A DNA stretch of 53,286 nt from Candidatus Thorarchaeota archaeon (GTDB lineage Archaea > Asgardarchaeota > Thorarchaeia > Thorarchaeales > Thorarchaeaceae), in NCBI GenBank assembly GCA_016840385.1, contig JAEOSL010000011.1, forward strand, positions 1 to 53,286, written 5' to 3'. The translations under genes were made by a program, and so were the position numbers. The stretch's first letter is position 1; every line of letters begins with the position of its first letter. The notes beneath the pieces were generated by a model. It saw nothing but the letters and a program-made list of their open reading frames with translations, did not search any database and had not been told where the DNA came from. Positions 4,150-33,462 of this stretch are shown piece by piece.

Positions 4150-4749
4150 TCAAGGAAAGGCTTTGAGGAATTCCTCAGGTTCGTCGCCTTCTTCGATGAG
4201 CTCAATTTCTTGAACACCAACTCTCTCGGCATCGTACCTTCTAGCAATGATGGTACCATCGAATTTCTCTCTGGCGGTTGCACCCTTACCTCGCCAAACG
4301 AAGATATCATCCCAAGTATCAAGGATGAAAACATCATCTGTCTTGAGAGAGTCTTTGTTCACAGGAACTTCAGCAAAGAAGGTTTCATCGCCCTCCCTAT
4401 GAACTCTCCAGAGTTTGTACTCATGAGATTCAAGATGGACTTTCTTCAGAATTCCTTCTGTATCCTCATCAGTTAGGCGGAAATCATCAAATAATGCTTT
4501 GAAGTCTTCAGGTTCATTGCCGCCTTCAATACGGTCAATGTCACCCTTACCTTCAATGGCGTCATCAGCTATTACAGCAGATGCAGCGGTTAGAAATTTC
4601 TCATCAGCAGTCGACTTGGGTCCAATCCACAGGTAGATTTTCATTCCAGCATCAACAAGGTAACAATCTCCTCGTCCGAAAGCACCGGGATCTGGCATCC
4701 TAACAAGCCGGCCCTTTTGGACATGGTAGACAACAACGGGCTCGAGCAT
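4150..4749 (-). CDS. Two-domain gelsolin-like actin-regulating protein (Asgard 2DGel type)
   Basis: A 199-residue protein with two gelsolin repeats, about residues 8-105 and 110-199. Each contains the characteristic strand-turn-strand core: DCYLVDAGMKIYLWIG followed by KSTADEKF in the first, and DVFILDTWDDIFVWRGKG followed by ATAREKF in the second. Two-domain gelsolins of Asgard archaea, described in Thorarchaeota, bind actin and can sever filaments or regulate assembly in a calcium-dependent way. That activity is established for the family, not shown here. A TATA-like GTATAATTTAAG (4774-4785, minus strand) ~25 bases before the ATG implies a very short leader. No actin gene lies in this window. 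Confidence 0.88.
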   Translation of the reverse strand: MLEPVVVYHVQKGRLVRMPDPGAFGRGDCYLVDAGMKIYLWIGPKSTADEKFLTAASAVIADDAIEGKGDIDRIEGGNEPEDFKALFDDFRLTDEDTEGILKKVHLESHEYKLWRVHREGDETFFAEVPVNKDSLKTDDVFILDTWDDIFVWRGKGATAREKFDGTIIARRYDAERVGVQEIELIEEGDEPEEFLKAFP

Positions 4750-9060: not shown

Positions 9061-10347
9061 TATGAGCTTAAAACCTCTCAGCAAGACCTTATACCGAACC
9101 TGAATGTTGATCAACAAGGCTTACAGGTATGAACTGGACCCCAACAACATCCAGAGGTCATACCTTGCTCAACATGCAGGAGTAGCTCGTTTTGCCTACA
9201 ACTGGGGTCTTGAACAAAGGATTGCACAGTACAAGAATAATCAGGGCGACGACCGGTTCACTGACGCCATGAAGCAACACAAACTCCTCAACTCACTGAA
9301 GAAGGACCTGTTCCCATGGATGTACGAAACCTCCAAGTGTGCCCCACATGAAGCCCTGAGAGACCTCCATCGAGCCTTCAAGAACTTCTATCGAGGTTTG
9401 AAGACTGGGAAGAAAATAGGATTCCCTCGCTTCAAGAGAAAGGGAGTCAGGGACAGCTTCAGACTTCACGGGACTATCAGGTTTCATGAGCGAGCAATCC
9501 AGCTCCCGCGGATTGGAAAGGTCAGGATCAAGGAGAAGAGGGAAATCTACTACAGCGGAAGGATACTCTCTGCTACAGTGCGACTAAGAGCCAACAGGTG
9601 GTTCGTGTCAGTCACTGTGGAGGAAGAGCTTCCGAAACCGCAACCCGTAACTGGAGCACCAGTGGGTGTAGACCTGGGAGTGAAGACTCTGGCTACTCTG
9701 AGTGATGGGACCACCTTTGCAAACCCACGGGCTCTAGGAAGACGAATGAGAAAGTTAAGGAAATTATCACAGAACCTGTCACGAAAGAAGAAGGCAAGTA
9801 AGAACCGAGAGAAGGCGAAGCTACGACTCGCCAAGATGTACCTTAGAATCTTCAACATCCGACAGGACACGCTGCACAAGGTGACGACACACATTGCTAA
9901 GAGCCACAGTAAGGTAGTGATCGAGGACCTGCTAGTGTCCGGGATGATGAAGAACAGAAGACTTGCAAGAGCGATAGCTGATGTAGGATTCTCTGAGTTC
10001 AGGAGACAGCTGGAGTACAAATGCCAGTGGTACGGCTCCGAGTTAGTGGTAGTATCCAGGACATTTCCGTCCTCGAAGATGTGTTCACAGTGTGGGCACA
10101 GGAAGAAAGAACTCTCCCTGTCAGAGAGAGAATACGTTTGTGAAGAGTGCGGTATGAGAATCGACAGGGATCTCAATGCTGCACTGAATCTGGTCGCCGT
10201 CAGTTTGCCGGAGACTGAAAACGCCTGCGGAGAGGAAGTAAGACTCTTAGCGGATCCTTTGGATCTACAGAGAGCAGCCTCTATGAAACAGGAACCGAAC
10301 ATCATTCCGGATTCTATATCAAAGAATGTCTAGGTTTCGGGGAACGG
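9061..10347 (+). mobile_element. Intact IS605-type TnpB element without TnpA, copy A
   Basis: The left end starts at TATGAGCTTAAAACCTCTCA (9061), a small TGAG/CTCA hairpin. The right end lies just past the tnpB stop at TTTCGGGGAACGG. Copy B (32175-33462, minus) has equivalent ends and nearly the same length, ~1.29 kb, so the borders are credible. Such elements encode an omega RNA overlapping the 3' end of tnpB, with its guide read from the flanking DNA after 10347. Confidence 0.75.
9104..10333 (+). CDS. tnpB: TnpB RNA-guided endonuclease (IS605 OrfB family)
   Basis: A 409-residue TnpB with all three RuvC acidic residues in place: GVDLGVK (Asp190), VIEDL (Glu274) and DRDLNAALNL (Asp356). A four-cysteine zinc finger (CSQCGH...CEECG) lies between RuvC-II and III. 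The N-terminal region (KAYRYELDPNNIQR; FNWGLE-type motif) binds the omega RNA. TnpB cuts DNA next to a target-adjacent motif and keeps its element in the genome. No tnpA is nearby, so mobility would need a transposase supplied elsewhere. A 251-codon antisense frame here is a shadow. Confidence 0.93.
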   Translation: MLINKAYRYELDPNNIQRSYLAQHAGVARFAYNWGLEQRIAQYKNNQGDDRFTDAMKQHKLLNSLKKDLFPWMYETSKCAPHEALRDLHRAFKNFYRGLKTGKKIGFPRFKRKGVRDSFRLHGTIRFHERAIQLPRIGKVRIKEKREIYYSGRILSATVRLRANRWFVSVTVEEELPKPQPVTGAPVGVDLGVKTLATLSDGTTFANPRALGRRMRKLRKLSQNLSRKKKASKNREKAKLRLAKMYLRIFNIRQDTLHKVTTHIAKSHSKVVIEDLLVSGMMKNRRLARAIADVGFSEFRRQLEYKCQWYGSELVVVSRTFPSSKMCSQCGHRKKELSLSEREYVCEECGMRIDRDLNAALNLVAVSLPETENACGEEVRLLADPLDLQRAASMKQEPNIIPDSISKNV

Positions 10348-16753: not shown

Positions 16754-18026
16754 TTGCTTTTAGGGGATGTCTTGAGAGTAATCGCTTTGCTATCTTCATC
16801 TTCAATTCCGAGAAAGGAGTTACCCGTGTGAAGATATCAGCAAAGTAACCACTCATCATTTGATCATCATCAATTATGTCGAAAAGCATCTCTAGATTCT
16901 TCTCAGACTTGTACATTATCCCTGCAAGAAATCGCAAATCGTTTAGCTCACCAATAAGTTGCTTCTTCATTCTTCTATCATATTCTACAATATGAACAGG
17001 AGACTTGTCATGAATAGCTTCTGCTGCAATGTCAGCAGCGAGAATTCCGGACTCGATAGCATATGAGATTCCTTCTCCGGATATCGCAGAAACAAGACCG
17101 GCCGCATCGCCAATGAGCATCGTGCGTCTTCCTATGATACGACTCGGAGACCCACCCAGAGGCACCCTCGCTGAGGTCTTATTGGTAATTTTGATTTTGA
17201 TGTCTTTATCAGCGGCAATTTTACTTAGAAATTGCTCCCATTTAGCACGAAGTCCTCTAGCCTTATCCAGTCGGCAACCAATCCCAATATTCAATGATTC
17301 CCGATTTGGAAAACACCAGCCATAACCCCACTCGATAAGACCGTAATAGAGGTCGATAAAGGAGAGAGATGATTCTTTCTCATTGAACATGACACGCTCT
17401 ATTTCCTTTGAGTCCAAGGGTACTTCAGCATTGATGCAAACTGCAACATCCTCTGTTGACCACCTCTGTCGAATATCAAGCTGCTTCATTGAAACCCCAT
17501 TGACTCCATCAGCGCCTACTAGAAGTTGAGCTTTGTACGAGTCGCCAACACCCAGTGCCCGTATTCCACTTCGAAGTTGTTCTATTGCCACAATTTCATT
17601 ATTCTGAACAATTACAGCTCCAGCTTCTTCTGCTTTATCGATGAGATAACTATCAAACTCATGGCGCTTAACCAGGCATCCCCTCAAATCTTCTCGTGTA
17701 ATCATGCTTTGTTTTCCCGAAGGTCTGTGCACTATGGCAGCATTGAATTCACGCTCAACAAGGTGGGAGATATCAAAATCAAGAGCTGCTATTGTTTGTG
17801 GACCCAAAGCACCGCCACAGGGTTTGGCCCGTGGGTGTTGTTCTTTTTCTACAAGAACCACATCTAGTCCATTCAAAGCTGCTTGTCTGGCGCAAGTTGC
17901 ACCACCAGGACCACCTCCAATTACCAAAAGATCGTGAATTCTGACGCACCAACCAAGAATACTATGTATCGCAACATGGATAAATCTCCTGTTTTGATTC
18001 AGTAAGTGGGTACAATACGATGACAT
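16737..18026 (-). CDS. Geranylgeranyl-reductase-family FAD flavoprotein
   Basis: An FAD-dependent oxidoreductase related to archaeal digeranylgeranylglycerophospholipid reductases, which saturate isoprenoid lipid chains. Motifs are the Rossmann DLLVIGGGPGGATCARQA, PCGGALGP, LLVGADGVNG and LIGDAAGLVSAISGEGISYA. The true start is unclear. The frame is open back to 18149, but an ATG at 18026 is the most economical. It already overlaps the divergent asparaginase start (18020) and puts ~30 unusual residues ahead of the Rossmann fold. No ATG, GTG or TTG lies nearer the fold. A substrate other than membrane lipid is possible. Confidence 0.85.
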   Translation of the reverse strand: MSSYCTHLLNQNRRFIHVAIHSILGWCVRIHDLLVIGGGPGGATCARQAALNGLDVVLVEKEQHPRAKPCGGALGPQTIAALDFDISHLVEREFNAAIVHRPSGKQSMITREDLRGCLVKRHEFDSYLIDKAEEAGAVIVQNNEIVAIEQLRSGIRALGVGDSYKAQLLVGADGVNGVSMKQLDIRQRWSTEDVAVCINAEVPLDSKEIERVMFNEKESSLSFIDLYYGLIEWGYGWCFPNRESLNIGIGCRLDKARGLRAKWEQFLSKIAADKDIKIKITNKTSARVPLGGSPSRIIGRRTMLIGDAAGLVSAISGEGISYAIESGILAADIAAEAIHDKSPVHIVEYDRRMKKQLIGELNDLRFLAGIMYKSEKNLEMLFDIIDDDQMMSGYFADIFTRVTPFSELKMKIAKRLLSRHPLKAIKLGF

Positions 18027-19072
18027 CCGAAGAAACCGCCAAAATCTGCCTGATATCAACAGGTGGAACCATCTCAAGTATCTATGATGAAGGAACCCAG
18101 GCCCTACGCCCAGGACTTTCAGTTGATGCGTTGCTAGATAGGTTACCAAAAGGAATGGGAAATGTCGAGGTCATCAAGAAGGAACTCTATCAACTTGATT
18201 CAGCAAATGCTCAACCGCATCATTGGCAAACTCTTGCAGGAGCCATTAAACAAGCAAGTGAGGAGATTCCAGACCTTCAAGGAATTGTCGTTTCACATGG
18301 AACAGACACGATGGTATATTCAGCGGCAGCAGTCAGCTTCATGATCCAGGACTTTGGAAAACCCATTGTCTTCACGGGAGCTCAGATACCTGCAAGTGTT
18401 CCCTGGAGTGATGGTCCACGAAATCTCTTGGATGCAATACGTGTTGCAGCGTTTGGAGACCTCGGAGAAACCTGTATTGTATTCAATAATGAGATTCATC
18501 GTGCTACACGAACAAAGAAGGTTCGAGTCAATTCATATGACGCATTCGATTCAACGGACCCATCTCCCATCGGAATATTGGCACGAGATATTGTACTCTA
18601 TGAAGGAAGGAAGAAACGTGACCATTCACTAATACCTCGCTTTGATACGAAACTTGATGATAGAGTGTTTCTATTGAAAGTCTTTCCAGGAATTCCACCT
18701 CAGACTCTTGCGCGTATTGTCGATATGGGCTATCATGGTATTATTGTCGAGGGTTTCGGTTCAGGGAATATTCCAACTGATGAAAACGCACTGACTGGAG
18801 TAATTAAACAAGCAGTTGACCAGAAGTGCTTCATTGTTGTGAGTTCACAGTGTGCTTTTGGTCAGGCGGATTTAACGATCTATGCTGTTGGTCGTGCAGC
18901 AATGGACGTTGGAGCAATGAGTGCCTATGATATGACCTCGGAGGCAGCCCTTGTGAAACTAGCCTGGGTGCTTGGACACACAAAGGAACCGGACCGTGTT
19001 CGCGAAATGATGGGTAAGAGTTACGTTGGTGAGATGTCATTTACAACAACTATCAACCCAAGTGACAAGTAG
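18020..19072 (+). CDS. L-asparaginase (type I family)
   Basis: Hydrolyses asparagine to aspartate and ammonia. The first catalytic threonine lies in LISTGGTISS and the second in VVSHGTDTMVYSAA. GAQIPASVPWSDGPRNLLDA and the C-terminal SSQCAFGQADL support the family. At 350 aa it lacks the extra N-terminal domain of GatD, and no GatE lies next to it, so a Glu-tRNA amidotransferase role is unlikely. The divergent reductase gene shares its upstream region; their starts overlap or nearly so. Confidence 0.9.
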   Translation: MTSEETAKICLISTGGTISSIYDEGTQALRPGLSVDALLDRLPKGMGNVEVIKKELYQLDSANAQPHHWQTLAGAIKQASEEIPDLQGIVVSHGTDTMVYSAAAVSFMIQDFGKPIVFTGAQIPASVPWSDGPRNLLDAIRVAAFGDLGETCIVFNNEIHRATRTKKVRVNSYDAFDSTDPSPIGILARDIVLYEGRKKRDHSLIPRFDTKLDDRVFLLKVFPGIPPQTLARIVDMGYHGIIVEGFGSGNIPTDENALTGVIKQAVDQKCFIVVSSQCAFGQADLTIYAVGRAAMDVGAMSAYDMTSEAALVKLAWVLGHTKEPDRVREMMGKSYVGEMSFTTTINPSDK

Positions 19073-19230
19073 AAAAGATGTTCGAGTTAGAAGTCATAAT
19101 CACTCCTTGGAACCAGACCCGCCTTGTTATGTTATTTTGCCAAGAATGCAAAAACATTTCAGATATTGTCGTCTAGTTTCAGATGGATTGTAGGATACAT
19201 ATCCGAATCAGGAGTGTGTAATGGAAGATA

Positions 19231-21327
19231 ATGGTTTCGAGAGAGAGGTTTGCTGAACTGTTCGAAGATAGCGAAAAGCTGATACTTGAGGGCAGATGCG
19301 ATGAAGCGCTACAACTGGTAAGAGGAATCGAGAGGTCACAGTTTGAGATTACCGATAGGTTGAGATGTGGAATCTTGGAAAGCAAGTGCTTGGCTAAACT
19401 TGGCGAGTTTGAGGAAGCCCTGGATATATCTCGCCAAGTTGTCGAGGAAGGTAAGAGAACCTCCGGGTACTCCAATAGAGTGGTTGACGCTCTGATTATA
19501 GTGGCAGAGTCCTTGTGGCGGTTGGGGCGACCCGATGAGAGTCTTGAAACGATTGAGGAGGGTGAACGGATATTTCAGACTCTAACGTTACACACATTGA
19601 CACTTCACGTACTGGGACACTCTGAGATCTTACGAATAAGGTCCGCTCTGCTGTATCACAAGGGAGTGGTCTACCGTCTACAAGGTGACCTCGACCAAGC
19701 CTTGGAGTATTACGAGCAGAGCCTGGCTCTCTACGAGGAATCGGGCAACAGACAAGGCATCGCTGCGGCTCTTAATGGTCTTGGCTCAGTTTTCAAACAA
19801 AAAGGCGACTTGGATCGAGCACTAGATTTCTACAAACGAAGCCTAGTACTCCAGGAGGAGATCGGAGACAAGCTGAACATTGCAAAAGCGCTCAACAACA
19901 TAGGCTTAACCTACGAAAATCAAGGCGAATTGGACAGAACCATGGAGTACTTTCAGCGGAGTCTGACACTCCTTGAAGAGAGCGGTCAAATGTATGTATT
20001 TGCTGTTGTTCTTCTCAACATCAGCATCTTGTACTATAGAAGAGGCGAACTGGACTTGGCCTTGGAGTGCTGCCAAAAGACCCTGACACTTTTTGAGGAG
20101 TTTGGCAACAAGCAATACATTGCTCAAACCCTCAACAACATCGGTAGTATATACTTCAGAAAAGGCGACTTGGGCCAAGCCTTAGAGTACAACAAACGCA
20201 GCCTAGCACTCAGGGAAGAAATCGGCAACAATCGTGAGATATCTCAGACTCTGCTCAACCTTGTTTCCATTACCATCGACAAAGACTCGATGGACCAGGC
20301 AAAGCATCACTTGCAGCGTCTGATGCACATCAACGAACAAGAAGAAAACAAGATTATTGACCAACGCTGTCGAGTGGCAGAAGCTCTGGTCCTTAAGACG
20401 AGTATGCGGGCACGAAACAGAGCCAAAGCAGAAAAACTTCTGGAACAAGTCGTAGAAGAAGAGATTGTTGCTCACGAGCTGACCGTCCGCGCTCTACTCA
20501 ACTTGTGTGACATACTCTTGGATGATCTACGCTTGTCTGGTGATGTGGAGGTCTTAAGGGGTGTGCAGACACATCTGAATAAACTGATTGAGATTGCCAC
20601 AGACCAGCACTCACATTGGTTGCTGGCTGAAGCCTACGTATTTCAATCCAAGCTGACGTTGCTGGACCTGAATGTGAGAAAGACCCGTCACTTGTTGACC
20701 GAAGCCCAAAGAATCGCCGATGAAAAAGGACTTGGTCAATTAGCCATGAAGATCTCAAGCGAACACGATGCGTTGCTTGATGAACTAGACAAATGGGAGG
20801 AACTCAGCAAACGAAAGGCGCCCCTGACTGAACGGACAGAACTGGCTCGCATAGATACGCACTTAGAACGAATGTTCCGACAGAGCCCAGTGGAAATCCC
20901 AACTCTGCCTGAAGAAGAGAAGGTAATGTTTATGCTCTTGGGACAAGGGGGACGGGTTGTATTCTCCAAGACTTTCATTAGTGTAACAGAGGTCGATGAG
21001 AACCTGATTGGGGGCTTTCTGAATGCGCTCCAAAGTTTCAGTTATGAAACGTTTTCCCAAACCATAGACCGAATCAAATTCGGGACATATACCATATTAA
21101 TCAAACCCATGGATCCTCTCACCATTTGCTACGTGTTTAAAGGACAATCCTATTCTGCACAACAGAAGTTGTTTCGGTTCATTGAAGTCGCACCTCAGAT
21201 GTCTTCGGTGTGGAATCCCGTGCTCGAAACCGCAAATTCCGGTCGAACTCTGAACATTGCGGCCCGGGCAGCCCTTGAATCCCTCCTCACTGAGGTGTTC
21301 GCTGGCGAGTCACAGAGATTTCAATAA
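19231..21327 (+). CDS. Large TPR protein with a C-terminal longin/roadblock-like domain
   Basis: A 698-residue helical-repeat protein. Five near-regular 40-residue TPRs occupy about residues 140-350, each with the pattern GDLDxALEYYxxSLxLxEExG. More divergent helices extend to ~540. The last ~130 residues differ: strands such as VMFMLLGQGGRVVFSKTF and YTILIKPMDPLTICYVF, with helices between, resemble a longin- or roadblock-like alpha/beta fold seen at the ends of archaeal TPR proteins. Probably a scaffold for small GTPases or signalling partners; the C-terminal fold is inference. It lies just before the degenerate tRNA-Ser copy. The DNA of the TPR units is visibly repetitive with a ~120-bp period. 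Confidence 0.75.
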   Translation: MVSRERFAELFEDSEKLILEGRCDEALQLVRGIERSQFEITDRLRCGILESKCLAKLGEFEEALDISRQVVEEGKRTSGYSNRVVDALIIVAESLWRLGRPDESLETIEEGERIFQTLTLHTLTLHVLGHSEILRIRSALLYHKGVVYRLQGDLDQALEYYEQSLALYEESGNRQGIAAALNGLGSVFKQKGDLDRALDFYKRSLVLQEEIGDKLNIAKALNNIGLTYENQGELDRTMEYFQRSLTLLEESGQMYVFAVVLLNISILYYRRGELDLALECCQKTLTLFEEFGNKQYIAQTLNNIGSIYFRKGDLGQALEYNKRSLALREEIGNNREISQTLLNLVSITIDKDSMDQAKHHLQRLMHINEQEENKIIDQRCRVAEALVLKTSMRARNRAKAEKLLEQVVEEEIVAHELTVRALLNLCDILLDDLRLSGDVEVLRGVQTHLNKLIEIATDQHSHWLLAEAYVFQSKLTLLDLNVRKTRHLLTEAQRIADEKGLGQLAMKISSEHDALLDELDKWEELSKRKAPLTERTELARIDTHLERMFRQSPVEIPTLPEEEKVMFMLLGQGGRVVFSKTFISVTEVDENLIGGFLNALQSFSYETFSQTIDRIKFGTYTILIKPMDPLTICYVFKGQSYSAQQKLFRFIEVAPQMSSVWNPVLETANSGRTLNIAARAALESLLTEVFAGESQRFQ

Positions 21328-21449
21328 AGGAGTTAACACTGCTTGACACTATGGAGGATGGGGGTGTCGCAACTCCTCCTCTATATTGTAAGGACCATGA
21401 AATGCACTAGAGAAAAGATGAAAAGGGAATACACAGCCAGAACGCGTAT

Positions 21450-21567
21450 GTCGAGGTAGCCAAGCCCGGTTCACGGCGATAGCCTGGAATCGATGGTTGT
21501 CTTTGCGACCTTCGCCTTGACAGCTATTCTGCAATAGGAAACATGAGTTCGAATCTCATCCTGGGCG
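21450..21567 (+). pseudogene. Degenerate tRNA-Ser(GGA) copy
   Basis: Nearly identical to the intact tRNA gene at 24611-24761 from ~35 bp upstream through the anticodon intron. It carries the same GGA anticodon region and a complete T-arm (ATGAG-TTCGAAT-CTCAT). The acceptor stem is damaged: GTCGAGG against CCTGGGC leaves a G:G mismatch and a G:T pair. The variable-arm stem is broken (CTGC against GGAA), and no CCA is encoded. It lacks the T-arm intron of the other copy. Probably a decayed duplicate. Confidence 0.7.
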
Positions 21568-21649
21568 TGAGAAGGATTCTGACGTGACTTTCCTTCCCAC
21601 CATTGAGATCTGTCGACTGACCATCGTCATCCTCTATGGGATAGTGGGT

Positions 21650-21748
21650 TTTCAATCCTACTTGTAGTTCGATTCATACATCATAGAGTCGCCCAACGTC
21701 GTGGTTGTGTCCCAAACGTTTCAATCCTACTTGCAGTTCGATTCATAC
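21650..21748. CRISPR. Two-repeat orphan CRISPR-like array
   Basis: Repeat 1 (21650-21679) and repeat 2 (21718/19-21748) share TTTCAATCCTACTTG...AGTTCGATTCATAC over 30 bases with one mismatch. They are separated by a unique 38-base spacer (21680-21717). The TTTCAATCC opening and repeat and spacer lengths fit CRISPR repeats. There are no cas genes in the window and only one spacer. A relic or solo unit is possible, and so is a simple two-copy direct repeat. Confidence 0.5.
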
Positions 21749-21982
21749 GGTACTAGCAGCAGTGATGTAGCGGTTTGTCCTACATGACCGATAGTCAAAA
21801 CAAGGAGGTCTTGCAGTGGATATAAGGACATCAACGAGTCGGTATTGCTGGGTTGTAAGGTGAAGTTAAATGCTCTCAGCATCACCCTTTGCCCTTGGAA
21901 TTCAGAGCTTCATGCTATCGATGTCCGACAATGTCCGTAGCGTGAACGGAGTTCCGGCAAAGAAAAAGAATAGGTTATAGAT

Positions 21983-22402
21983 ATGACATCAAATGATAGT
22001 ATCCAGATTCTGGTCTTGGAGAAAGACCAAGCAATAGAAGCAGCTGCAAATAAGGCAATAGAGGAGATTAACATGCTCCTTGAAGTTGACGACAGGAGGG
22101 TGAGAACCAGCTGGCGCGACATCATATCAAAGGTCAAGGACAAAATGGACCAAGTCAAAGACGCACTGAGTATGACTGTCACGCTCAAGCCCGTGCCTGT
22201 TGACGTGACAACCATTACTGAACAACTTGAGAAACTCTCACCCCTGTTGGAATCAGTAGAGAATCTCACGAAGATTGAAGTCAGTGTTTCAGTTGCGAGA
22301 ACAGCAAAGGGCGAACTTAAAGTTGTCTTCTTGACAGGAGGTGGCGAAGCTACGGGTAGGACTGGTCTCAACTTCATACTCTCAAACCCGCTATCAAAGT
22401 AG
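21983..22402 (+). CDS. Small protein resembling trypsin-co-occurring domain 1 (trypco1)
   Basis: A 139-residue protein with an acidic helical first half and a C-terminal beta-rich part: EQLEKLSPLLESVENL, then KIEVSVSVARTAKGEL and KVVFLTGGGEATGRTGLNFIL. This helix-strand layout resembles the trypco1 (CU044_2847-like) domain, found near trypsin-like or CHAT proteases and NTPases in predicted bacterial conflict systems. It lies convergent to the CHAT protease gene (52 bp between stops), which supports the idea. The family assignment is tentative. Confidence 0.5.
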   Translation: MTSNDSIQILVLEKDQAIEAAANKAIEEINMLLEVDDRRVRTSWRDIISKVKDKMDQVKDALSMTVTLKPVPVDVTTITEQLEKLSPLLESVENLTKIEVSVSVARTAKGELKVVFLTGGGEATGRTGLNFILSNPLSK

Positions 22403-22454
22403 TCAATGGTACATTGACCTAACCAGTGATTCTAAGATCACTAAGGCTGTAAGG

Positions 22455-23594
22455 TCATCTCTCATAGATGAATCGAACAGTCCTCGGGTCACACCTCTCG
22501 GAGTGGAGCTTCGGAACATCACGCTCGTACTGATCGTCTATTACCAAATGAATCCTATTACATCCCAGGTCGTAGGCTTTCTTTACACTTGCTCCTGAAC
22601 CCAGAGCCTCGTAGAAGCCCTTAGCGAATTCTAAGGCAGAGTCGTCTTCAATCTCCCTAGACATTCCAACAACGCAGTCGATATGGCTCGAGATTACCTG
22701 TGCTTGGCCCTCAGCGTAGCATGCACTAAGCACCACACACCGAATATTATGTTTGAGCAAAGAAAAGAGGTCCCCTAGTGCACTAGTCGGGACGGGGTGA
22801 CTGAAGCCAGACTTGTCCTCCAAGATGAGTTCTCCTGTACTTAGTCCATGACCACTGAAATGAACAATATGGGGCTTGATATCCCTTAGGAGACGCTGAA
22901 GGTCATCAGCGCGGGTAGCCCACTCATCAATTACTTCGAACTCTGATTTTCGTAGATTCAATCGAAGCAACCGAATCTCCGTTCCTGACCTGAGTTGGTC
23001 TTCATCTACCGGGTTTGCAGCAAGAAAGAGGACTTTGACCTTGCCCTGCTCCTTAGCAGGTGGTGGTCCTTCTGTAACCAGCGGAGGCGACACCTCATCG
23101 ACCTCATGTACTAAGACCTGGGCAATCTCACTAAGCAGCCTTTGTGTTATTTGCCGTTCAAATTCAGCTTCTCGGTAAGATTGTAGTATCTCAAGCAGCC
23201 TACCTTTCATTCCTGGCAACTGCAGGTCCTCAATACCTCGTGAAATGCCACGCTCCAGCTCAAGAGCAATATCTCCGCCATGAAACCTAGTCTGCCACCA
23301 AAGACCGATTGAGTATCCAAAAGATACCAACGATGCTATGCGTGGATTGACGTGCCTGATTTCTTCAATAATCTTGTCCGGTACCTGTGAGGAGTCCAAT
23401 TGGTTTTGCATAATTGTGGAATTTGGTACGTACCTATCTGTAAACTGAAATCTCAGCCTCTCATCGTCCTTAGTAGGATAGGGGTACTTGTTAGGTTTCA
23501 TTTTATGTCCTACAAGCTCCATTCTCAAAGTTGAGAGATTGAACCCGAAACCCAGGTGCCGGTACACCTCGCTATATGGAATGCTAACAATCAC
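22455..23594 (-). CDS. CHAT-domain (caspase-fold) protease
   Basis: A 379-residue protein with an uncharacterised N-terminal region (~1-180) and a C-terminal CHAT domain. The domain begins VKVLFLAANPVDEDQLRSG and contains the catalytic dyad: His249 in HFSGHG and Cys292 in VVLSACYAEG. CHAT proteases are caspase relatives (as in HET-F associated with TPRs and the Csx29 protease); many act in antiviral or cell-death systems. It starts at GTG 23594 and converges on the trypco1-like gene. It may be the effector of a small defence cassette lying between duplicated tRNA-Ser copies. Confidence 0.85.
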   Translation of the reverse strand: MIVSIPYSEVYRHLGFGFNLSTLRMELVGHKMKPNKYPYPTKDDERLRFQFTDRYVPNSTIMQNQLDSSQVPDKIIEEIRHVNPRIASLVSFGYSIGLWWQTRFHGGDIALELERGISRGIEDLQLPGMKGRLLEILQSYREAEFERQITQRLLSEIAQVLVHEVDEVSPPLVTEGPPPAKEQGKVKVLFLAANPVDEDQLRSGTEIRLLRLNLRKSEFEVIDEWATRADDLQRLLRDIKPHIVHFSGHGLSTGELILEDKSGFSHPVPTSALGDLFSLLKHNIRCVVLSACYAEGQAQVISSHIDCVVGMSREIEDDSALEFAKGFYEALGSGASVKKAYDLGCNRIHLVIDDQYERDVPKLHSERCDPRTVRFIYER

Positions 23595-24051
23595 ACATAT
23601 CCCTCATCAATGGACTGTCTTCCCTGCATTATAATTTTCCGCTTGAATGACAAGCTTACAACGTCAAGTCCTATTGCCTGACAACCACCTATTGTTTTCA
23701 CCCAGCGAACCCAAAGGGTTCATCCATCGGGATGGTTTCTCCACGCAGACTGTATGTAAAGCGTTCAGATCAGTTTCCACAGACTGACAAGAAGCTGTTA
23801 GATTCTTGTCTTCTGGTCGGAAGATAACTAGAGAATTGTATCGAGCTGACTTCGAAATGTTGCATCACCAGATTCCGTGAGTCCCTTGAGATGACCATGT
23901 GACGAAGGAACTGTGACGGTGGTACGCTCATTCTGGTGAGTCATGCTGCATTTCTTTCCCTGACACAAGTCTGTTCATAATGTTGCAGCCTTGCAACCTG
24001 TTTCAAAGGTTGTTTCGCAAATAATGGATTGCTTCTGCTACAGGAGAAACA
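23595..24051. other. Hairpin-rich intergenic region, possible ncRNA
   Basis: No gene is visible in these 457 bases. The region contains GAACCC-AAA-GGGTTC (23707-23721), then ATCC-ATCG-GGAT (23722-23733). GACAAGAA (23786-23793) pairs perfectly with TTCTTGTC (23803-23810) across a 9-base loop. Three stems within ~100 bp suggest a structured transcript or protein-binding sites between the divergent CHAT and winged-helix genes. Confidence 0.35.
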
Positions 24052-24582
24052 ATGAGTACGAGGAAGAACAGTCCTGCAATTATTGATGGTCTTCTCAATT
24101 TGGAATACATCGTATTGTATCATATTGATGGGAATAACCAAGCTGGTGGCAATAATGGTGTGATTAATACTGAATTATACAAACTCCTCAAAGTTGCATT
24201 TGATAGCAACGTTCTACCTATTTTGCTCAGAAGAAGTCGGCCCATACCATTGGCTTCGTTAGTTAGTAAAGCAAGCATAAGTGCCAGAGGCTTGAGGGAA
24301 CAACTTAGAAAACTAGAGAAGATTGACGTTGTTGAACGATTTTGGTATGAAAGGAGAAAGGGAGTTAAAGTATCGGATAATTGGAGAATGGCTCTAAAAC
24401 CACTACTCAAAGAGAGGGAGAGTAAAGTGTCTGCACCTCGCAACCTATATGTGAAACTGGTTCGATCATCATTTGATTGCCTGTCATTGGAGTTTCTGAC
24501 TTCAGGTCGTGTCAATCTAGGTGAATTCGTGAATCTTGAGAAACTTATGAGACCTTGGGTGGGAATCAAAGGGAAAAGATGA
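24052..24582 (+). CDS. Winged-helix DNA-binding protein
   Basis: A 176-residue protein with a winged-helix core: LPILLRRSRPIPLASLVSKA, then SARGLREQLRKLEKIDVVERF and a basic wing, WYERRKGVKV. It is basic overall. It is transcribed away from the CHAT protease gene, and its last codons run into the segment duplicated upstream of both tRNA-Ser copies. It could regulate the cassette. Family not recognised beyond the HTH fold. Confidence 0.65.
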   Translation: MSTRKNSPAIIDGLLNLEYIVLYHIDGNNQAGGNNGVINTELYKLLKVAFDSNVLPILLRRSRPIPLASLVSKASISARGLREQLRKLEKIDVVERFWYERRKGVKVSDNWRMALKPLLKERESKVSAPRNLYVKLVRSSFDCLSLEFLTSGRVNLGEFVNLEKLMRPWVGIKGKR

Positions 24583-24610
24583 AAAGGGGATACGCCGCCA
24601 GAACGCGTAT

Positions 24611-24761
24611 GCCGAGGTAGCCAAGCCCGGTTCACGGCGATAGCCTGGAATCGATGGTTGTCTTTGCGACCTTCGCCTTGACAGCTATTCTCCATTAGGA
24701 GGCATGAAAACTGATCAATTCGGTCGGTTTGGCCAAAGTTCGAATCTCATCCTCGGCGCCA
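24611..24761 (+). tRNA. tRNA-Ser(GGA) with two introns
   Basis: The acceptor stem GCCGAGG (24611-24617) pairs with CCTCGGC (24751-24757), followed by discriminator G and an encoded CCA (24759-24761). The D-arm has A14, G18-G19 and A21. The anticodon stem ATAGC/GCTAT encloses C-T-GGA-A, so the anticodon is GGA (24647-24649). A 32-nt intron after position 37 spans 24651-24682. The variable arm CTCC-ATTA-GGAG marks class II. The T-arm (ATGA...G-TTCGAAT-CTCAT) is interrupted by a second ~30-nt intron (24708-24737), absent from the degenerate copy. A T-rich stretch follows. Splicing would need the archaeal bulge-helix-bulge endonuclease. Confidence 0.88.
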
Positions 24762-24796
24762 TCTTCTTTTCTTTAGACAGTACTTTAGTCAATACT

Positions 24797-25195
24797 TCAT
24801 CTGAAAGACCCATTTCTTACAATTGTAAGAGACTCCTGTGTTCCACCTTTCTCACGACTGCCGTCACCAGCATCTGAAGTACCGAGGTTCTTCAAAGTGT
24901 CACGAGCTTTGCCCCTCTTCATTGGAACATCGTTCCTCCGATGGGACCTGGCATCTGTCCTCTGCGTTACCTCACACGCACCAGATGGTGTGATAGCAGA
25001 CGGTGTTTCCACAGCATTTACCATGGCAGGGTCTTCACTCCTCGCAAACTCCACAAGTGAAGTCTGGTCATAGGGGTCGGCCACGGACTCCCCTTTTGAG
25101 GCTGGCGTCCTCTGGGGGAGTGCGGACTTCCTTTTAGAAGAACGAGTCTTCCTCCGGGCTTTCAGTATGGCTCTATCTCTAAGAGTGAACCACAT
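24797..25195 (-). pseudogene. Internally deleted TnpB-family remnant (132 codons)
   Basis: The frame opens MWFTLRD, which matches WWFNLRD near residue 170 of the derivative at 27880-28686. It then jumps at once to the C-terminal tail LKARRKTRSSKRKS...GESVADP. The RuvC nuclease and zinc finger that lie between these parts in full TnpB are absent. The tail diverges from copies 1 and 3. It may be a non-coding relic that stays open by chance. Confidence 0.55.
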
Positions 25196-25341: not shown

Positions 25342-26331
25342 ATGTTCTTCAAGACGACGGGAAAATGTACCAATCTCGTAGCCAAACTAGAACAGCAAGC
25401 AGCGAGGCCGCAAGAAATGATTCACAGTACAGTTCTCCTCAGATTAAAGAGTAGTAGAACAATTGCAGCTACTCAATATTGGACTGTTCAAGTACCACGA
25501 AGTGATATCAAAGAATTTCTGAAGGCCAGACAAGAGTTACTAAAGGTAGCAAAAGGACAGAAGGGCATCTCTCTCAATGTAGGGGGCAACAAGTACTTTG
25601 CACAGACCGTAACTCCCGATATTCTTCTGATATTCATCACCGATATCGATGAGAACGATCGAAATGTCACAGAGAAAATCAAAGCGGCAGCAAAAGGACT
25701 CGACGAGATAATAGAACAGAAGAAAATGCCTTTTGTAAAGAAGAACTACGAGAAGCTCATCAATCCCTTTGTTCATTCTAAACTGAAGGTGGCACTTGTC
25801 GGAGAAGGTGGTGTCGGAAAGACTACAACACTTCATCTCCTCATGGGAAAACGCCCCCCAACACAATATATCCCAACTATCGCACTTGCGATGGAAGTCA
25901 TTGAGAACATCCACTTTGCTAATTATTCACTCGTTCTCTGGGACTTTGCGGGGCAGGAACGTTTCAGAAAACTTTGGAAATTGTATTTCCAAGGTGCAGA
26001 TATTGTGTTCCTTCTTACTGACTCAACACTAAGAAATATCCTGATTTCGAAGGATATGTTCCAAATGATCCGTCGCGATGCGCCGCACGTACCAATCATT
26101 GTCATTGCAAACAAGCAGGATAAACCGAATGCTCTTGACCCTTCAATTATTGAACGGATAGTTGGGGCTGAAACCCATCCATTAGTAGCAGTAGATCTTA
26201 CTTATAGAAATGATATCCTGAAACTCCTCCTTGATACTGTAGCAAGACACGTCAATATTCCTGTTCCAGACCTACCTGCTGATGACCTTCTTCGATTCAC
26301 TGATGAGGATGAAGTCGCGCAGGAAGAGTAG
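25342..26331 (+). CDS. Small Ras/Arf-like GTPase with an N-terminal longin-like domain
   Basis: The C-terminal ~180 residues are a small GTPase: G1 GEGGVGKTTT, G2 around IPTIAL, G3 DFAGQE and G4 NKQD. G5 is replaced by AVDLTYRN. The DFAGQE form is Arf/Rab-like. The N-terminal ~120 residues (STVLLRLKSSRTIAATQYW; ILLIFITDIDENDRNV) look like an alternating strand/helix domain of longin or roadblock type, the kind that regulates GTPases in eukaryotes. The real start may be ATG 25417, where similarity to the next gene (MIHSTV against MIYNTV) begins. It forms a tandem pair with the gene at 26470. Confidence 0.82.
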   Translation: MFFKTTGKCTNLVAKLEQQAARPQEMIHSTVLLRLKSSRTIAATQYWTVQVPRSDIKEFLKARQELLKVAKGQKGISLNVGGNKYFAQTVTPDILLIFITDIDENDRNVTEKIKAAAKGLDEIIEQKKMPFVKKNYEKLINPFVHSKLKVALVGEGGVGKTTTLHLLMGKRPPTQYIPTIALAMEVIENIHFANYSLVLWDFAGQERFRKLWKLYFQGADIVFLLTDSTLRNILISKDMFQMIRRDAPHVPIIVIANKQDKPNALDPSIIERIVGAETHPLVAVDLTYRNDILKLLLDTVARHVNIPVPDLPADDLLRFTDEDEVAQEE

Positions 26332-26469: not shown

Positions 26470-27357
26470 ATGATTTACAATACCGTCTTGATGAATACAG
26501 CAAGCCGGAAAAAGATTGCAACCTCCGATTATTGGACTCACAAGGTATCTCGTGCACAGCTAACCAAGTATCTGAAAACGCTTCTTGAAATGATAGAGAA
26601 ATCCGACCGTCTCAAGTACAAACCTGCTATTATTGGTGAGTTCAAATTCTATGGTCGAGAATGTGGGGATGATACTCTCATCATCTTTGTTATGGACCTT
26701 AACGAGCCCGATGATGAGGTAGTAAGCAAAATCAATCGAGCTGCACGTGTGTTGAGAGGTGTTCTAGAAAAACATCCCACCAAATACATCAAGAGTAACT
26801 TCTCACGAATTGTTGATCCCTATGTAGTAGCAAGATATGTCATTTCTTTAATTGGAGAGAGTGGTGTTGGCAAGACTTCTCTTCTAAGGTTGCTAATGGG
26901 CCGAGAACCACCTGAAGAGCACATTCCCACGATTGCATTGAACACTGAGGTAATTGAGAATATTAGGTTTGCAAACTATGAGATTATGATAATTGATTTT
27001 GCAGGTCAAGAATCATCAAGGAATCTCTGGGATTTCAGCTCAACCGATATGGTGTTCCTCCTTACTGACTCGACTCTGAGGAATCTCATAGCCTCAAAGG
27101 GAATTATGTCAACGATTCAGAAAGAGAATCCTGATTTACCAATTGTCATCTTTGCAAACAAACAGGACTTACCCAATGCATTGGATCCAACAGCAATAAG
27201 CAAGATAATGGGAGTCGATGTTCGCTCAATGGTTGCAGTTGACTTGGCGTATAGGAACAGCCTACTCAATACTCTAACTTTTGTTTTGTGTCAGCACTTC
27301 GATTTAGAAGTACCAGATATTCTTCCAGACGATCTTCTTCGTTTCGTTCCTGAATGA
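26470..27357 (+). CDS. Small Ras/Arf-like GTPase with an N-terminal longin-like domain, paralogue
   Basis: A 295-residue paralogue of the preceding gene over its whole length: N-terminal domain MIYNTVLMNTASRKKIATSD, then G1 GESGVGKTSLL, G2 IPTIAL, G3 DFAGQE, G4 NKQD and the same unusual AVDLAYRN in place of a SAK-type G5. The C-terminus ends LPDDLLRFVPE, as in its twin (LPADDLLRFTDE). With no lipidation motif visible, it is probably cytosolic or held at membranes through the N-terminal domain. The tandem duplication suggests partners or a heterodimer. Confidence 0.82.
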   Translation: MIYNTVLMNTASRKKIATSDYWTHKVSRAQLTKYLKTLLEMIEKSDRLKYKPAIIGEFKFYGRECGDDTLIIFVMDLNEPDDEVVSKINRAARVLRGVLEKHPTKYIKSNFSRIVDPYVVARYVISLIGESGVGKTSLLRLLMGREPPEEHIPTIALNTEVIENIRFANYEIMIIDFAGQESSRNLWDFSSTDMVFLLTDSTLRNLIASKGIMSTIQKENPDLPIVIFANKQDLPNALDPTAISKIMGVDVRSMVAVDLAYRNSLLNTLTFVLCQHFDLEVPDILPDDLLRFVPE

Positions 27358-27857: not shown

Positions 27858-28808
27858 GGTCTGAAGTTTATAACCTCAGGTGAAGAAGATGGGTCGCTCC
27901 AAGGGTACGATAATCAGTGTTAAGGTCCCGATAAACTGGGATGCTATGACAACACGTACTCAACAGAGATTGAGACAGATTGTTGGGAGGGATACAAGGG
28001 TTATCCGTGCATTTCTTGGAATAATTGAACAATATGAAAACAAGCTATTGACAGGTCGTAAGAAAAATAAAATTCATGATGGTAAACTAGATGAACTCAC
28101 GCTGACCGCAATCAAAGTGAGAACCGGTTATGGTCAGAGGACAACAGTCCCCCATGACATTAAAAAGAGGTTCCCAAGGATCTCCGCCAATGAGCTTCAA
28201 GAGTGCAGACAAACCGCAGTGGCACTCTATGAGAGTTACTTGGCTTTGAAACAGAAGAAAGGGTGGAAAGCATCTCGTCCTTCTGAAGTGAATAGGTCTC
28301 GAAGAATGCCGCGATGGGTATTTTCTCTAAGATTTAAAATTGAACATAGTTCGTCCACTGTTTCAAAATGGTGGTTCAACCTTAGAGATACGCTTGATTC
28401 TGTGCAAGCAGGGAAACACTCACGACTGAAAGCCCGAAAGAAGAAATCTTCTTCCAAAGGGAAGTCCTTACTCTCTAAAAAAGAATCGACATCGGATTCT
28501 GGAGAGTCCGCGGCTGTTCACTTTGTCCAATCGGACCTCATTAGTTTCAGTGATGGAGCTAGTGGGAGTGATAATGACCCCGCCGTGGTAAAAACTGTGG
28601 AAACTCTCTCTGTTGCTGGAAGTGATGCACCAGCAGTAAAACAGGAGAAGGAAGCCAGGTCTTCAGGAGGGATTCCATCCCGATGAACGTTGACAAAGCT
28701 CTTGCTAAGTTTAGCATTTTTTCGAAAATGCTGGATGGTGGTGACACTGGCAGGAGAAGGGTGGAACACAGAAATTTCTTACAGTTGATGTTCACTCACC
28801 AAAGTGTA
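27858..28808 (+). mobile_element. TnpB (IS605-type) deletion derivative, copy 3
   Basis: It runs from a left-end motif (GAAGTTTATAACCTCAG, 27862-27878) to a right end with CTTACA...TGTAAG spaced as in copies 1 and 4, ending near GTGTAAGAATT (28808). About 950 bp. It holds one open gene carrying both ends of a tnpB reading frame but not the nuclease core. Confidence 0.65.
27880..28686 (+). CDS. RuvC-less TnpB-derived protein (268 aa)
   Basis: Residues ~1-175 match the N-terminal, RNA-binding part of a large archaeal TnpB family (RQIVGRDTRVIRAFLGII; NELQECRQTAVALYESYL; RRMPRWVFSLRFK; WWFNLRDTLDSV). At ~residue 180 it switches to that family's C-terminal tail (SRLKARKKKSSSKGKS...GESAAVHFVQSDL). 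The whole RuvC nuclease and zinc finger are gone, yet the frame stays open for 268 codons. The start is ATG 27889 or GTG 27880. It may be a dead derivative, or an exapted protein that still binds the guide RNA or competes with full TnpB. Confidence 0.65.
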   Translation: MKKMGRSKGTIISVKVPINWDAMTTRTQQRLRQIVGRDTRVIRAFLGIIEQYENKLLTGRKKNKIHDGKLDELTLTAIKVRTGYGQRTTVPHDIKKRFPRISANELQECRQTAVALYESYLALKQKKGWKASRPSEVNRSRRMPRWVFSLRFKIEHSSSTVSKWWFNLRDTLDSVQAGKHSRLKARKKKSSSKGKSLLSKKESTSDSGESAAVHFVQSDLISFSDGASGSDNDPAVVKTVETLSVAGSDAPAVKQEKEARSSGGIPSR

Positions 28809-32174: not shown

Positions 32175-33462
32175 GCCGTTACCCGAAACTGAAACAATCT
32201 TGGACTCAAGATCCCTGATTGATGTTCGGTTCCTGCTTCACAGAGGTCTGCTTTGCAAATCCCGAAGGATCTGCGATAAGTCTTACATCCTCTCCACAGG
32301 CAGTTAAAGTCTCCGGCAAACTGACGGTGACTAGATTGAGTGCAGCGTTCAAGTCCCTATCTATTTTCAACCCACACTCTTCACATTCATACTCCCTTTC
32401 CAAAAGGGATAGTTCCTTCTTCTTATGTCCACAGACAGAACACTTCTTTGACGAAGGAAACGTTCTTGGTACCACTTCGAGTTTTGAACCATACCACTGG
32501 CATTTGTACTCCAGTTGTCTTCGGAACTCATAGAATCCCACATCTGCTATTGCTCGTGCCAACCTTCGGTTCTTCATCATTCCTGACACTCCTAAGTTTT
32601 CAATTACTATCTTACTGTGGCTCTTGGCAAGATATGTCGTTAACTTGTGAAGTGTGTCCTGTCGAACATTGAATATCTTCAGGTGCATTCTAGCAAGTCT
32701 GAGCTTGGCTCTCTCTCGGTTCTTACTCCCCTTCTTCTTTCTGGACAGACTCTTTGATAGCTTCCTCAACTTCTTGATACGTCTTCCTAGGGCTCGTGGA
32801 TTAGCAAAGGTAGTCCCATCCGAAAGCGTTGCTAACATCTTTATCCCAAGGTCTGCGCCTACTGCATAACTAACGATGGGTTTCGGGTCTACTATCTCTT
32901 CTTCCACAGTGACTGACACGAACCACCGGTTCGCCCTCCTCCTCAATGTTACTGATAATATCCGCCCTTTGTAATACTGTTTTCTTTTCTCCTTTATCCG
33001 TATCTTTCCGATTCTAGGAAGTTGTATCTTCCTTCCTTCAAATCGAATTGTTCCAGTCAGTCTGAAACTATCGTGAATGCCCTTGCTCTTGAACCTTGGA
33101 AATCCGATTTTCTTTCCATTCTTCAATCCGCGATAGAAATTCCTGAAAGCTCTATGGAGGTCTCTTAGGGCCTCTTGAGGTGCACACTTTGAACAATCAT
33201 ACATCCAGGGGAATTGAGTCTTTTTCAGGCTGTTCAGAAGTTTATGCTGTTTCATGTGGTTAGTGAAACGATCATTTCCCTGAGTGTTCTTGTATAATTT
33301 GATCCTTTCTTCTAGTCCCCAGTTGAATGTAAAACGTGCTACTCCTGCATGCTGAAAAAGGGATTTTCTCTGTTGGTTGTTGGGGTCAAGTTCATATTTG
33401 TAGGCTTTATGGACCAACATAAGAGTCGATAATTAGTGATGCAGGAAGTATAAAATCTCATA
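32175..33462 (-). mobile_element. Intact IS605-type TnpB element without TnpA, copy B
   Basis: On the minus strand it runs from a left end TATGAGATTTTATACTTCC (edge 33462) to a right end TTTCGGGTAACGG (~32175). These borders match copy A (9061-10347), and the lengths agree within a few bases. No TnpA nearby. The guide part of its omega RNA would be read from the DNA just below 32175, upstream of the zinc-finger gene. Confidence 0.75.
32206..33420 (-). CDS. tnpB: TnpB RNA-guided endonuclease (IS605 OrfB family)
   Basis: A 404-residue TnpB close to the one at 9104-10333 across its whole length. The RuvC residues are intact: VGADLGIK, VIENLGVSG and DRDLNAALNL. The zinc finger is CSVCGH...CEECG. 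Substitutions relative to copy A are spread along the protein, so the two copies are related but not recent duplicates. Expected to be an active guide-RNA-dependent nuclease. Confidence 0.93.
   Translation of the reverse strand: MLVHKAYKYELDPNNQQRKSLFQHAGVARFTFNWGLEERIKLYKNTQGNDRFTNHMKQHKLLNSLKKTQFPWMYDCSKCAPQEALRDLHRAFRNFYRGLKNGKKIGFPRFKSKGIHDSFRLTGTIRFEGRKIQLPRIGKIRIKEKRKQYYKGRILSVTLRRRANRWFVSVTVEEEIVDPKPIVSYAVGADLGIKMLATLSDGTTFANPRALGRRIKKLRKLSKSLSRKKKGSKNRERAKLRLARMHLKIFNVRQDTLHKLTTYLAKSHSKIVIENLGVSGMMKNRRLARAIADVGFYEFRRQLEYKCQWYGSKLEVVPRTFPSSKKCSVCGHKKKELSLLEREYECEECGLKIDRDLNAALNLVTVSLPETLTACGEDVRLIADPSGFAKQTSVKQEPNINQGS

What the first reader, a model, noticed from the sequence alone, without database searches (positions are those of the whole stretch)
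21413..24764. A CHAT-protease cassette bracketed by duplicated tRNA-Ser genes
Seen: ~35 bp upstream plus the tRNA-Ser(GGA) body occur twice in the same orientation, 3.2 kb apart, one copy decayed. Between them are a CRISPR-like pair, a trypco1-like protein, a CHAT protease, a hairpin-rich spacer and a winged-helix protein. Known: genomic islands often sit at tRNA genes, and CHAT and trypco domains belong to conflict systems. Inference: this is a small, undescribed defence or cell-death cassette of an Asgard archaeon. There is no integrase, so the mechanism could be duplication rather than integration.
Basis: partly seen in the sequence, partly recalled or inferred. Interest (0 to 1): 0.78.

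Follow-up and report, generated by a model that had tools for sequence, protein, structure and literature searches.

The report
Island at a duplicated tRNA gene
In an Asgard archaeon, a small block of extra genes, including a caspase-like protease, sits between two copies of one tRNA gene that differ by an intron, which suggests that mobile DNA crossing over at tRNA genes may change which introns they carry.

Summary
The tRNA-Ser(GGA) repeat is real, but the reading needs correction. The downstream copy (24611-24762) is an intact gene with CCA and two introns (32 nt in the anticodon loop, 30 nt in the T arm). The upstream copy (21450-21567) is the decayed one and lacks the T-arm intron. In relatives a single tRNA-Ser usually lies beside the asparaginase gene (gap 160 bp or less in 22 of 23 aligned loci), and two close relatives show empty sites. 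The lineage-specific block is about 5.5 kb (19,081-24,572), includes a TPR gene, and is flanked by a 9-bp tRNA-promoter motif. The CRISPR-like pair is genuine: it has the repeat of a CRISPR-Cas locus in a relative. The CHAT protein keeps its His/Cys dyad and caspase-like fold but matched 0 of 47 class genomes. The three genes were not found together elsewhere, so 'defence cassette' is unsupported; Trypco1 fails (weak Pepco only). Best reading: a composite island formed by recombination at or inside tRNA-Ser, with the geometry of the published Caldiarchaeum tRNA-Thr locus. Across relatives the T-arm intron comes and goes (at least 5 changes), and some intron sequences are shared by distant genomes.

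The parts
18020..19072 (+). asparaginase gene, conserved left anchor of the tRNA-Ser site
   Evidence: PF00710/PF17763; same neighbour in relatives
19072..19080 (+). remnant of the tRNA-Ser promoter motif (GAAAAGATG) left at the asparaginase stop codon; left edge of the inserted block ('promoter' is inferred from position and conservation)
   Evidence: relatives L120/L121 continue from this point straight into the tRNA leader; the 9-mer occurs at 19072, 21412 and 24573 on the + strand and once on the - strand
19231..21327 (+). TPR-repeat protein, inserted between asparaginase and tRNA copy 1
   Evidence: Pfam TPR; no match in the fetched relatives' loci; strong matches to its C-terminal part only in some class genomes, best 54% in G191
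21409..21449 (+). promoter and leader of tRNA copy 1
   Evidence: direct repeat, conserved in relatives
21450..21567 (+). tRNA-Ser(GGA) copy 1, decayed: anticodon-loop intron only, no T-arm intron, no CCA, acceptor mismatch
21650..21748 (-). CRISPR repeat-spacer-repeat (30-nt repeats at 21650-21679 and 21719-21748, 39-nt spacer 21680-21718)
21983..22402 (+). 139-aa protein, tentative Pepco-like
   Evidence: PF24393 18.1 bits, below cut-off; PADLOC PDC-M02B E 1.8e-4; no other relative found
22455..23594 (-). 379-aa CHAT (caspase-like) protease with a helical N-terminal domain
   Evidence: PF12770; H249 and C292 invariant in 47 aligned sequences; model resembles SAVED-CHAT and caspases
24052..24582 (+). 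176-aa winged-helix-type protein; resembles the C-terminal part of an 802-aa, weakly HerA-like ATPase/winged-helix protein and of a 312-aa winged-helix protein
24570..24610 (+). promoter and leader of tRNA copy 2; right edge of the inserted block
24611..24762 (+). tRNA-Ser(GGA) copy 2, intact, encoded CCA
   Evidence: ARAGORN tRNA-Ser(gga) after removal of both introns
24651..24682 (+). 32-nt anticodon-loop intron of copy 2
24708..24737 (+). 30-nt T-arm intron of copy 2
   Evidence: hairpin of 8 pairs, standard in 12 of 12 sequences with changes on both sides in several pairs
24797..25195 (-). 132-aa ORF just 3' of copy 2, apparent derivative of a TnpB-like gene; also 3' of the tRNA in G211

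Best explanation
A composite, lineage-specific island formed by recombination at or inside the resident tRNA-Ser(GGA) gene. Shown: in close relatives the order is asparaginase, promoter, tRNA-Ser, then the GTPase or 132-aa ORF; the window has about 5.5 kb of extra DNA there, including a second promoter-plus-tRNA unit. Inferred: incoming DNA carrying a tRNA-Ser unit (without the T-arm intron and degenerate at its 3' end), a CRISPR remnant, the 139-aa gene, CHAT and the winged-helix gene crossed over with the resident two-intron gene in the stretch where the copies are identical (21452-21530). This left a chimeric one-intron pseudogene on the left, and on the right the working gene with its T-arm intron and old 3' neighbour. 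The TPR gene entered separately, or together with it, at the promoter motif. Inferred cargo function: the CHAT protein is a caspase-like protease switched on through its helical N-terminal domain, probably harmful to the cell or to an invader when active; no partner is established.
For: Empty sites: L121 has asparaginase stop, promoter, tRNA and GTPase start within 270 bp; L120 has asparaginase, tRNA, then the 132-aa ORF. The asparaginase-to-tRNA gap, measured from the end of the BLAST match, is 160 bp or less in 22 of 23 aligned loci, against 2,377 and 5,538 bp in the window (for relatives; window values by subtraction). Copy 2 keeps the ancestral 3' flank, copy 1 does not. Copies are identical over 79 nt (21452-21530) but differ at 5 of 37 sites plus a 30-nt indel to the 3' side (Fisher p 0.003) and at 5 of 43 to the 5' side (p 0.005) (split chosen after inspection). 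Homology ends at the tRNA 3' end. Other DNA, without the asparaginase gene, lies at the same promoter edge in G200 (L070, contig ends 1.4 kb upstream). CHAT looks acquired: 37 of 38 related loci are in bacterial records (42-52% identity, mostly the C-terminal part) and 0 of 47 class genomes match. The 139-aa and winged-helix proteins are each recorded on three contigs, longest 71,844 bases, which makes a one-off assembly error less likely.
Against: No integrase or recombinase recognised in the island. Each repeat includes the promoter, unlike classical attL/attR, which usually span only part of the tRNA. The identical middle block could also reflect selection or gene conversion; a first, cruder split gave only p 0.051. 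The order of the TPR insertion and the tRNA duplication is unresolved. G+C of the inserted block (0.45-0.47) is at the high end of, but inside, the window's 3-kb range (0.374-0.472). Viral contig scans, which reach close relatives only, gave none for CHAT or the winged-helix protein. The whole genome is not held.
Confidence: 0.5

Rival explanations
1. Plain tandem duplication of the tRNA-Ser transcription unit, later spread apart by unrelated insertions at a permissive intergenic spot; the T-arm intron was lost from (or gained next to) one copy independently.
For: The copies share changes not seen in the aligned relatives (leader GCGTATG, intron CTTGAC) and full promoters; no integrase recognised; gene content between them is heterogeneous and was not found together elsewhere.
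Against: Homology ends at the tRNA 3' end rather than including 3' flank; the 79-nt identical block with divergence on both sides is not what simple decay of one copy predicts (split chosen after inspection).
Confidence: 0.3
2. A true small defence or cell-death cassette (139-aa adaptor, CHAT protease, winged-helix regulator) using the tRNA as its integration site.
For: CHAT is a known effector protease type with intact dyad; the 139-aa protein touches Pepco and a PADLOC candidate model weakly.
Against: No recurrence of the trio found: winged-helix and CHAT co-occur in 0 of the 5 Asgard genomes with the former; Pepco in 1 of 227 without linkage; no convincing relative of the 139-aa protein among 62 small ORFs near 38 CHAT relatives. 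The 139-aa gene and CHAT are convergent, not an operon.
Confidence: 0.12
3. Site-specific integration or transposition at the promoter motif GAAAAGATG: a 5.5-kb element with a 9-bp core or target duplication, carrying its own tRNA-Ser copy.
For: The 9-mer stands at the left edge (19072), at copy 1 (21412) and at the right edge (24573); G200 also has other DNA ending at this motif.
Against: The motif is conserved before tRNA-Ser in many relatives, so its presence at copies 1 and 2 is expected anyway; no terminal inverted repeats noticed by eye and no transposase or integrase recognised in the block.
Confidence: 0.2

Closest known systems
Caldiarchaeum subterraneum tRNA-Thr(GGU) locus (PMC3293823; abstract, part 1 of Results and part 1 of Discussion read)
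   Same: A one-intron tRNA piece lies upstream, same strand, of a two-intron copy of the same tRNA, with about 2-3 kb of inserted DNA between; a one-intron allele without the insert exists in a related clone; authors propose intron gain by mobile-element integration.
   Different: Theirs is a 5' fragment, ours a nearly full-length copy with promoter; their insert encodes a putative recombinase, in ours none was recognised; intron positions differ (24/25 and 45/46 against anticodon loop and T arm); theirs was shown within one population, ours by comparison of species.
tRNA-targeted archaeal integrative elements (SSV- and pNOB8-type, as described in PMC3293823)
   Same: Direct repeat ending at the tRNA 3' end; one working tRNA retained; empty sites.
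   Different: No integrase recognised; repeat extends upstream into the promoter; block is small and composite.
SAVED-CHAT protease (PDB 8tl0)
   Same: CHAT part related by sequence profile (4e-24) and by Foldseek (1.3e-10).
   Different: Only the CHAT part aligns by sequence; no SAVED domain listed by Pfam; the N-terminal domain is predicted helical; no type III CRISPR or cyclase gene recognised in the window proteins scanned.
Effector-associated small domains Trypco1/2 (PMC7159879, passages read; Pepco taken from Pfam)
   Same: Small protein beside a protease gene; weak Pepco match.
   Different: Below Pfam's cut-off; convergent with the protease gene; the Trypco partners described are trypsin-like, in ternary systems not recognised here.

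Membership tests
tRNA-integrated mobile element (SSV/pNOB8 type) | direct repeat ending at the tRNA 3' end with a working tRNA retained | tested here: met
tRNA-integrated mobile element (SSV/pNOB8 type) | empty site in close relatives | tested here: met
   L120, L121
tRNA-integrated mobile element (SSV/pNOB8 type) | repeat confined to part of the tRNA | tested here: not met
   repeat includes promoter and whole tRNA
tRNA-integrated mobile element (SSV/pNOB8 type) | integrase gene in or at the edge of the element | tested here: not met
   none among 37 window proteins scanned with Pfam, of 50 ORFs of 120 aa or more
Caldiarchaeum-type tRNA disruption locus | one-intron tRNA copy or fragment upstream of a two-intron copy, same strand | tested here: met
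Caldiarchaeum-type tRNA disruption locus | inserted DNA encodes a recombinase and recurs elsewhere in the genome | tested here: inconclusive
   no recombinase found among the island's proteins; recurrence not testable, the window's genome is not held
CHAT protease family | PF12770 above cut-off | tested here: met
   31.9 against 24 bits
CHAT protease family | catalytic His and Cys (motif knowledge recalled) | tested here: met
   H249 and C292 invariant in 47 of 47 aligned sequences
CHAT protease family | caspase-like fold | tested here: met
   model mean pLDDT 77, Foldseek hits to 8tl0 and caspases
CHAT protease family | proteolytic activity | not testable with these tools
   needs experiment
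Trypco1 / Pepco domain | match over the curated cut-off | tested here: not met
   Pepco 18.1 of 27 bits; Trypco1 not listed at E up to 1
CRISPR array | near-identical repeats with a unique spacer, same repeat as a bona fide array | tested here: met
CRISPR array | cas genes nearby | tested here: not met
   no cas family among the 37 window proteins scanned except the Cas12f1-like TNB domain of two TnpB transposases

The most novel reading that the evidence does not exclude
tRNA-Ser(GGA) in this class is a recurrent crossover point for mobile DNA, and each crossover between the anticodon intron and the tRNA 3' end swaps the T-arm intron state. The window would be a frozen intermediate with both states side by side, and the T-arm intron would be, in effect, a passenger that spreads between species through such swaps. 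Supporting: of 25 relative rows, 11 have the intron at the window's site, 3 have an unrelated insert at another T-arm site and 11 have none; at least 5 changes are forced on the asparaginase tree and the trait is not clearly more clustered than shuffled labels; G204 and G212 share 28 of 30 T-intron bases with 41% identity in the anticodon intron and 72% in asparaginase; G211 and G190 share 29 of 30 with 71% asparaginase identity; a window-like T-intron occurs once per genome, at this tRNA, in the 5 of 47 genomes matched; among window, G211, G208 and G200 the T-intron and the TnpB-like remnant 3' of the tRNA are present or absent together. Against: over all 91 pairs the T-intron tracks asparaginase identity no worse (rank correlation 0.38) than the anticodon intron or exons do (0.29 each), G211/G190 are also alike in the rest of the gene, so whole-gene transfer fits too, and the remnant was matched in no other fetched T-intron locus than G211's.
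Probability: 0.27. Interest if true: 0.72.

Novelty: new variant of a known kind. Interest (0 to 1): 0.5.

Why it matters
How archaeal tRNA genes gain and lose introns is unsettled. One published locus, in Caldiarchaeum, suggested that mobile DNA does it. This locus has the same geometry in an Asgard archaeon, with an intact tRNA on one side, sister species in both intron states, and some intron sequences shared by distant genomes, so the idea can be tested by comparison. The protease cargo alone looks like ordinary horizontal transfer of a known effector type.

Tried and rejected
Rejected: 'hairpin-rich spacer' as special (z -1.5). Rejected: Trypco1 assignment. A shuffle test of the 139-aa protein against the one Asgard Pepco protein (L140) gave score 56, with 4 of 500 shuffles as high, so weak. 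Rejected: the idea that the spacer holds the lost N-terminal half of the winged-helix protein; the longer tblastn alignment is less significant than the shorter one. Spacer target search: 25 central bases, no exact match in viral contigs; the CRISPR repeat is absent there too. CHAT on plasmids: 67 of 72,556 records, none covering 80% of it. A motif regex for tRNA-Ser found only 14 loci, so an alignment of 25 hand-picked rows, from 40 loci of 36 genomes fetched out of the class's 47, was used. Loci with asparaginase but outside those rows: G181, G183, G221 have a tRNA match within about 110 bp; G185 and G205 have it 758 and 1208 bp away; in G186, G218, G219 BLAST found none. Two of the 25 rows (G200, G193) have no asparaginase on the contig, so the gap count is out of 23; its exception is G209b (1021). 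In G220, G222 and G225 the T-arm insert lies at another site and is unrelated; one search had lumped them with the rest, and recounts: 7 changes by parsimony instead of 8, at least 5 forced either way, 142-161 of 500 shuffles as low when they count as absent, 282-296 when left out, against 343-357 before. The first Fisher split gave p 0.051; the 79-nt split was chosen after seeing the differences, so its p-values are optimistic. On checking I lowered the novel case from 0.30 to 0.27 because of the rank correlations.

Claims about what is in print rest on paper searches only. Papers: PMC3293823 abstract, part 1 of Results and part 1 of Discussion; PMC7159879, PMC10907252, PMC11291895, PMC4390854 passages only; the rest search listings.


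Full report
What was claimed and what is there. The tRNA repeat is real and far beyond chance: 138 nt at 93% plus a second 22-nt block at 95%, same strand, 3.16-3.19 kb apart. Removing a 32-nt intron after CCTGGAA and a 30-nt insert in the T arm from the downstream copy gives a tRNA that ARAGORN reads as tRNA-Ser(gga) with its stems paired and an encoded CCA. The upstream copy has only the anticodon intron, a G.G mismatch in the acceptor stem, an altered variable arm and no CCA. So the decayed copy is the upstream one, and what looks like an interruption in the downstream copy is a second intron. That insert folds as an 8-pair hairpin in which all 12 aligned sequences keep every pair, several through changes on both sides.

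The ancestral site. No whole genome is held for the window, so relatives were reached through a Heimdallarchaeota CHAT locus (L005). Ribosomal protein S4 matched in 198 of 227 genomes of that phylum, and four genomes stand closest to the window at 76-85%. They belong to a class of 47 held genomes, of which 36 were sampled at this site. tRNA-Ser(GGA) usually lies beside the asparaginase gene: 22 of 23 aligned loci have a gap of 160 bp or less; outside the alignment the picture is mixed (three more close, two at 758 and 1208 bp, three with no tRNA found). In G208 (L121) and G211 (L120) the tRNA promoter begins at the asparaginase stop codon; these are empty sites. In the window the asparaginase stop still carries the first 9 bases of that promoter (GAAAAGATG), but then a TPR gene follows, then copy 1, then the reported region, then copy 2 and the old 3' flank. 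The lineage-specific block is therefore about 5.5 kb, not 3.2 kb. G200 (L070) has other DNA ending at the same motif. The tRNA stands in the opposite orientation to asparaginase in 11 of the 23 loci.

The genes inside. CHAT: PF12770 over cut-off, His249 and Cys292 invariant in 47 aligned sequences, a predicted fold close to SAVED-CHAT and then animal caspases, and an N-terminal helical domain; of the 120 proteins listed out of 2892, apart from the window's own only P0003 covers more than 66% of the query (91%). Of 38 related loci in named genomes, 37 are bacterial and one is Heimdallarchaeota. It matched 0 of 47 class genomes, although 60 of 227 Asgard genomes have some CHAT match, 53 over the cut-off. 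The 139-aa protein has a weak Pepco match, a weak PADLOC PDC-M02B match and no other relative found. The 176-aa winged-helix protein matches 5 of 227 Asgard genomes. In G213 it aligns to the C-terminus of an 802-aa protein with a sub-threshold HerA match and winged-helix domains, near a DUF3800 gene. In G190 it aligns to the C-terminal half of a 312-aa winged-helix protein. In G212 the match is broken and lies 250 bp 3' of a tRNA-Ser with a TnpB remnant between (the CGA anticodon there was read by eye). The CRISPR pair carries the repeat of two three-repeat arrays beside cas6, TM1802, cas7, cas5 and cas3 genes in G213.

Does the trio recur? Not in what was searched. None of the five genomes with the winged-helix relative is among the 60 with CHAT. 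Pepco is over the cut-off in 1 of 227. Sixty-two small ORFs near 38 CHAT relatives gave no convincing match to the 139-aa protein. The 139-aa gene and CHAT are convergent. A defence role for CHAT alone remains plausible from its family, but 'cassette' is not supported.

How it probably arose. The copies are identical for 79 nt covering the tRNA 5' half and anticodon intron, and diverge on both sides (split chosen after inspection). Copy 2 has the ancestral 3' flank. Copy 1's homology stops at the tRNA 3' end, beyond which lies island DNA. This is what a crossover between a resident two-intron gene and an incoming copy would leave, the incoming 3' end being the degenerate one without T-arm intron. 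It mirrors the Caldiarchaeum tRNA-Thr locus, where a one-intron fragment lies 1.8 kb upstream of a two-intron copy and integration was proposed as the source of the intron (PMC3293823). Differences: full promoter in both copies and no recombinase recognised. Plain duplication followed by insertions cannot be excluded.

The wider pattern. In 25 aligned relative rows (24 genomes) the T-arm intron is at the window's site in 11, at another site and unrelated in 3, and absent in 11. On an asparaginase tree of 24 rows at least 5 changes are forced, 7-8 by parsimony, and shuffled labels often do as well (142-357 of 500 by coding), so the trait is not clearly inherited in blocks. Some T-intron sequences cross species lines: G204/G212 are 28 of 30 identical (largest of 20,000 shuffles 18 of 30) while their anticodon introns are 41% identical; G211/G190 are 29 of 30, but their anticodon introns (84%) and exons (96%) are alike too. 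A window-like T-intron pattern was found once per genome in 5 of 47 genomes, all five at tRNA-Ser loci already in the alignment. Against this: over 91 pairs the T-intron follows asparaginase identity no worse than the rest of the gene does (0.38 against 0.29 and 0.29), alignment of 30-nt introns is fragile, the tree rests on one gene, and long branches are present (G217, G184). Multi-intron tRNAs are already reported in other Asgard lineages (PMC11291895, passages). No listing pointed to a description of this locus.

Verdict. A real, somewhat unusual island, mis-described in part; not a new defence system on present evidence; a plausible second example, in another phylum, of a tRNA locus where inserted DNA and intron state change together.

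Noticed in passing
window 24708-24737 and relatives L070-L135: T-arm intron of tRNA-Ser(GGA) is patchy: same-site intron in 11, other-site insert in 3, none in 11 of 25 aligned relative rows, with some intron sequences shared between distant genomes.
   Followed up: partly
window 27880-28686 and 24797-25195; L083 11303-12952: A 268-aa ORF looks like a TnpB-like protein whose catalytic middle is deleted, N- and C-terminal parts joined in frame; a full-length 549-aa version is in L083, and the 132-aa ORF beside tRNA copy 2 resembles its tail.
   Followed up: partly
window 9104-10333 and 32206-33420: Two TnpB (IS605 OrfB) genes, each with three Pfam domains of that family.
   Followed up: no
relatives: L075, L078, L079, L081, L122 and others: tRNA-Ser(GGA) beside the asparaginase gene is in opposite orientation in 11 of 23 aligned loci.
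   Followed up: no
L122, L123 (G209): One genome bin holds two different asparaginase plus tRNA-Ser contig ends, either a mixed bin or a second duplication.
   Followed up: no
window 25342-26331 and 26470-27357: Two tandem Arf/Ras-like GTPase genes with an N-terminal region of about 120-145 aa that Pfam does not match; one or both lie near S13-S4-S11 in many of the fetched relatives.
   Followed up: no
window 4150-4749: Gelsolin-repeat protein, an Asgard hallmark gene ('hallmark' is recalled).
   Followed up: no
L146 7104-7900 (G212): tRNA-Ser (CGA by eye) followed at once by a TnpB tail remnant and a broken relative of the winged-helix gene, a similar neighbourhood at a different tRNA-Ser.
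   Followed up: partly
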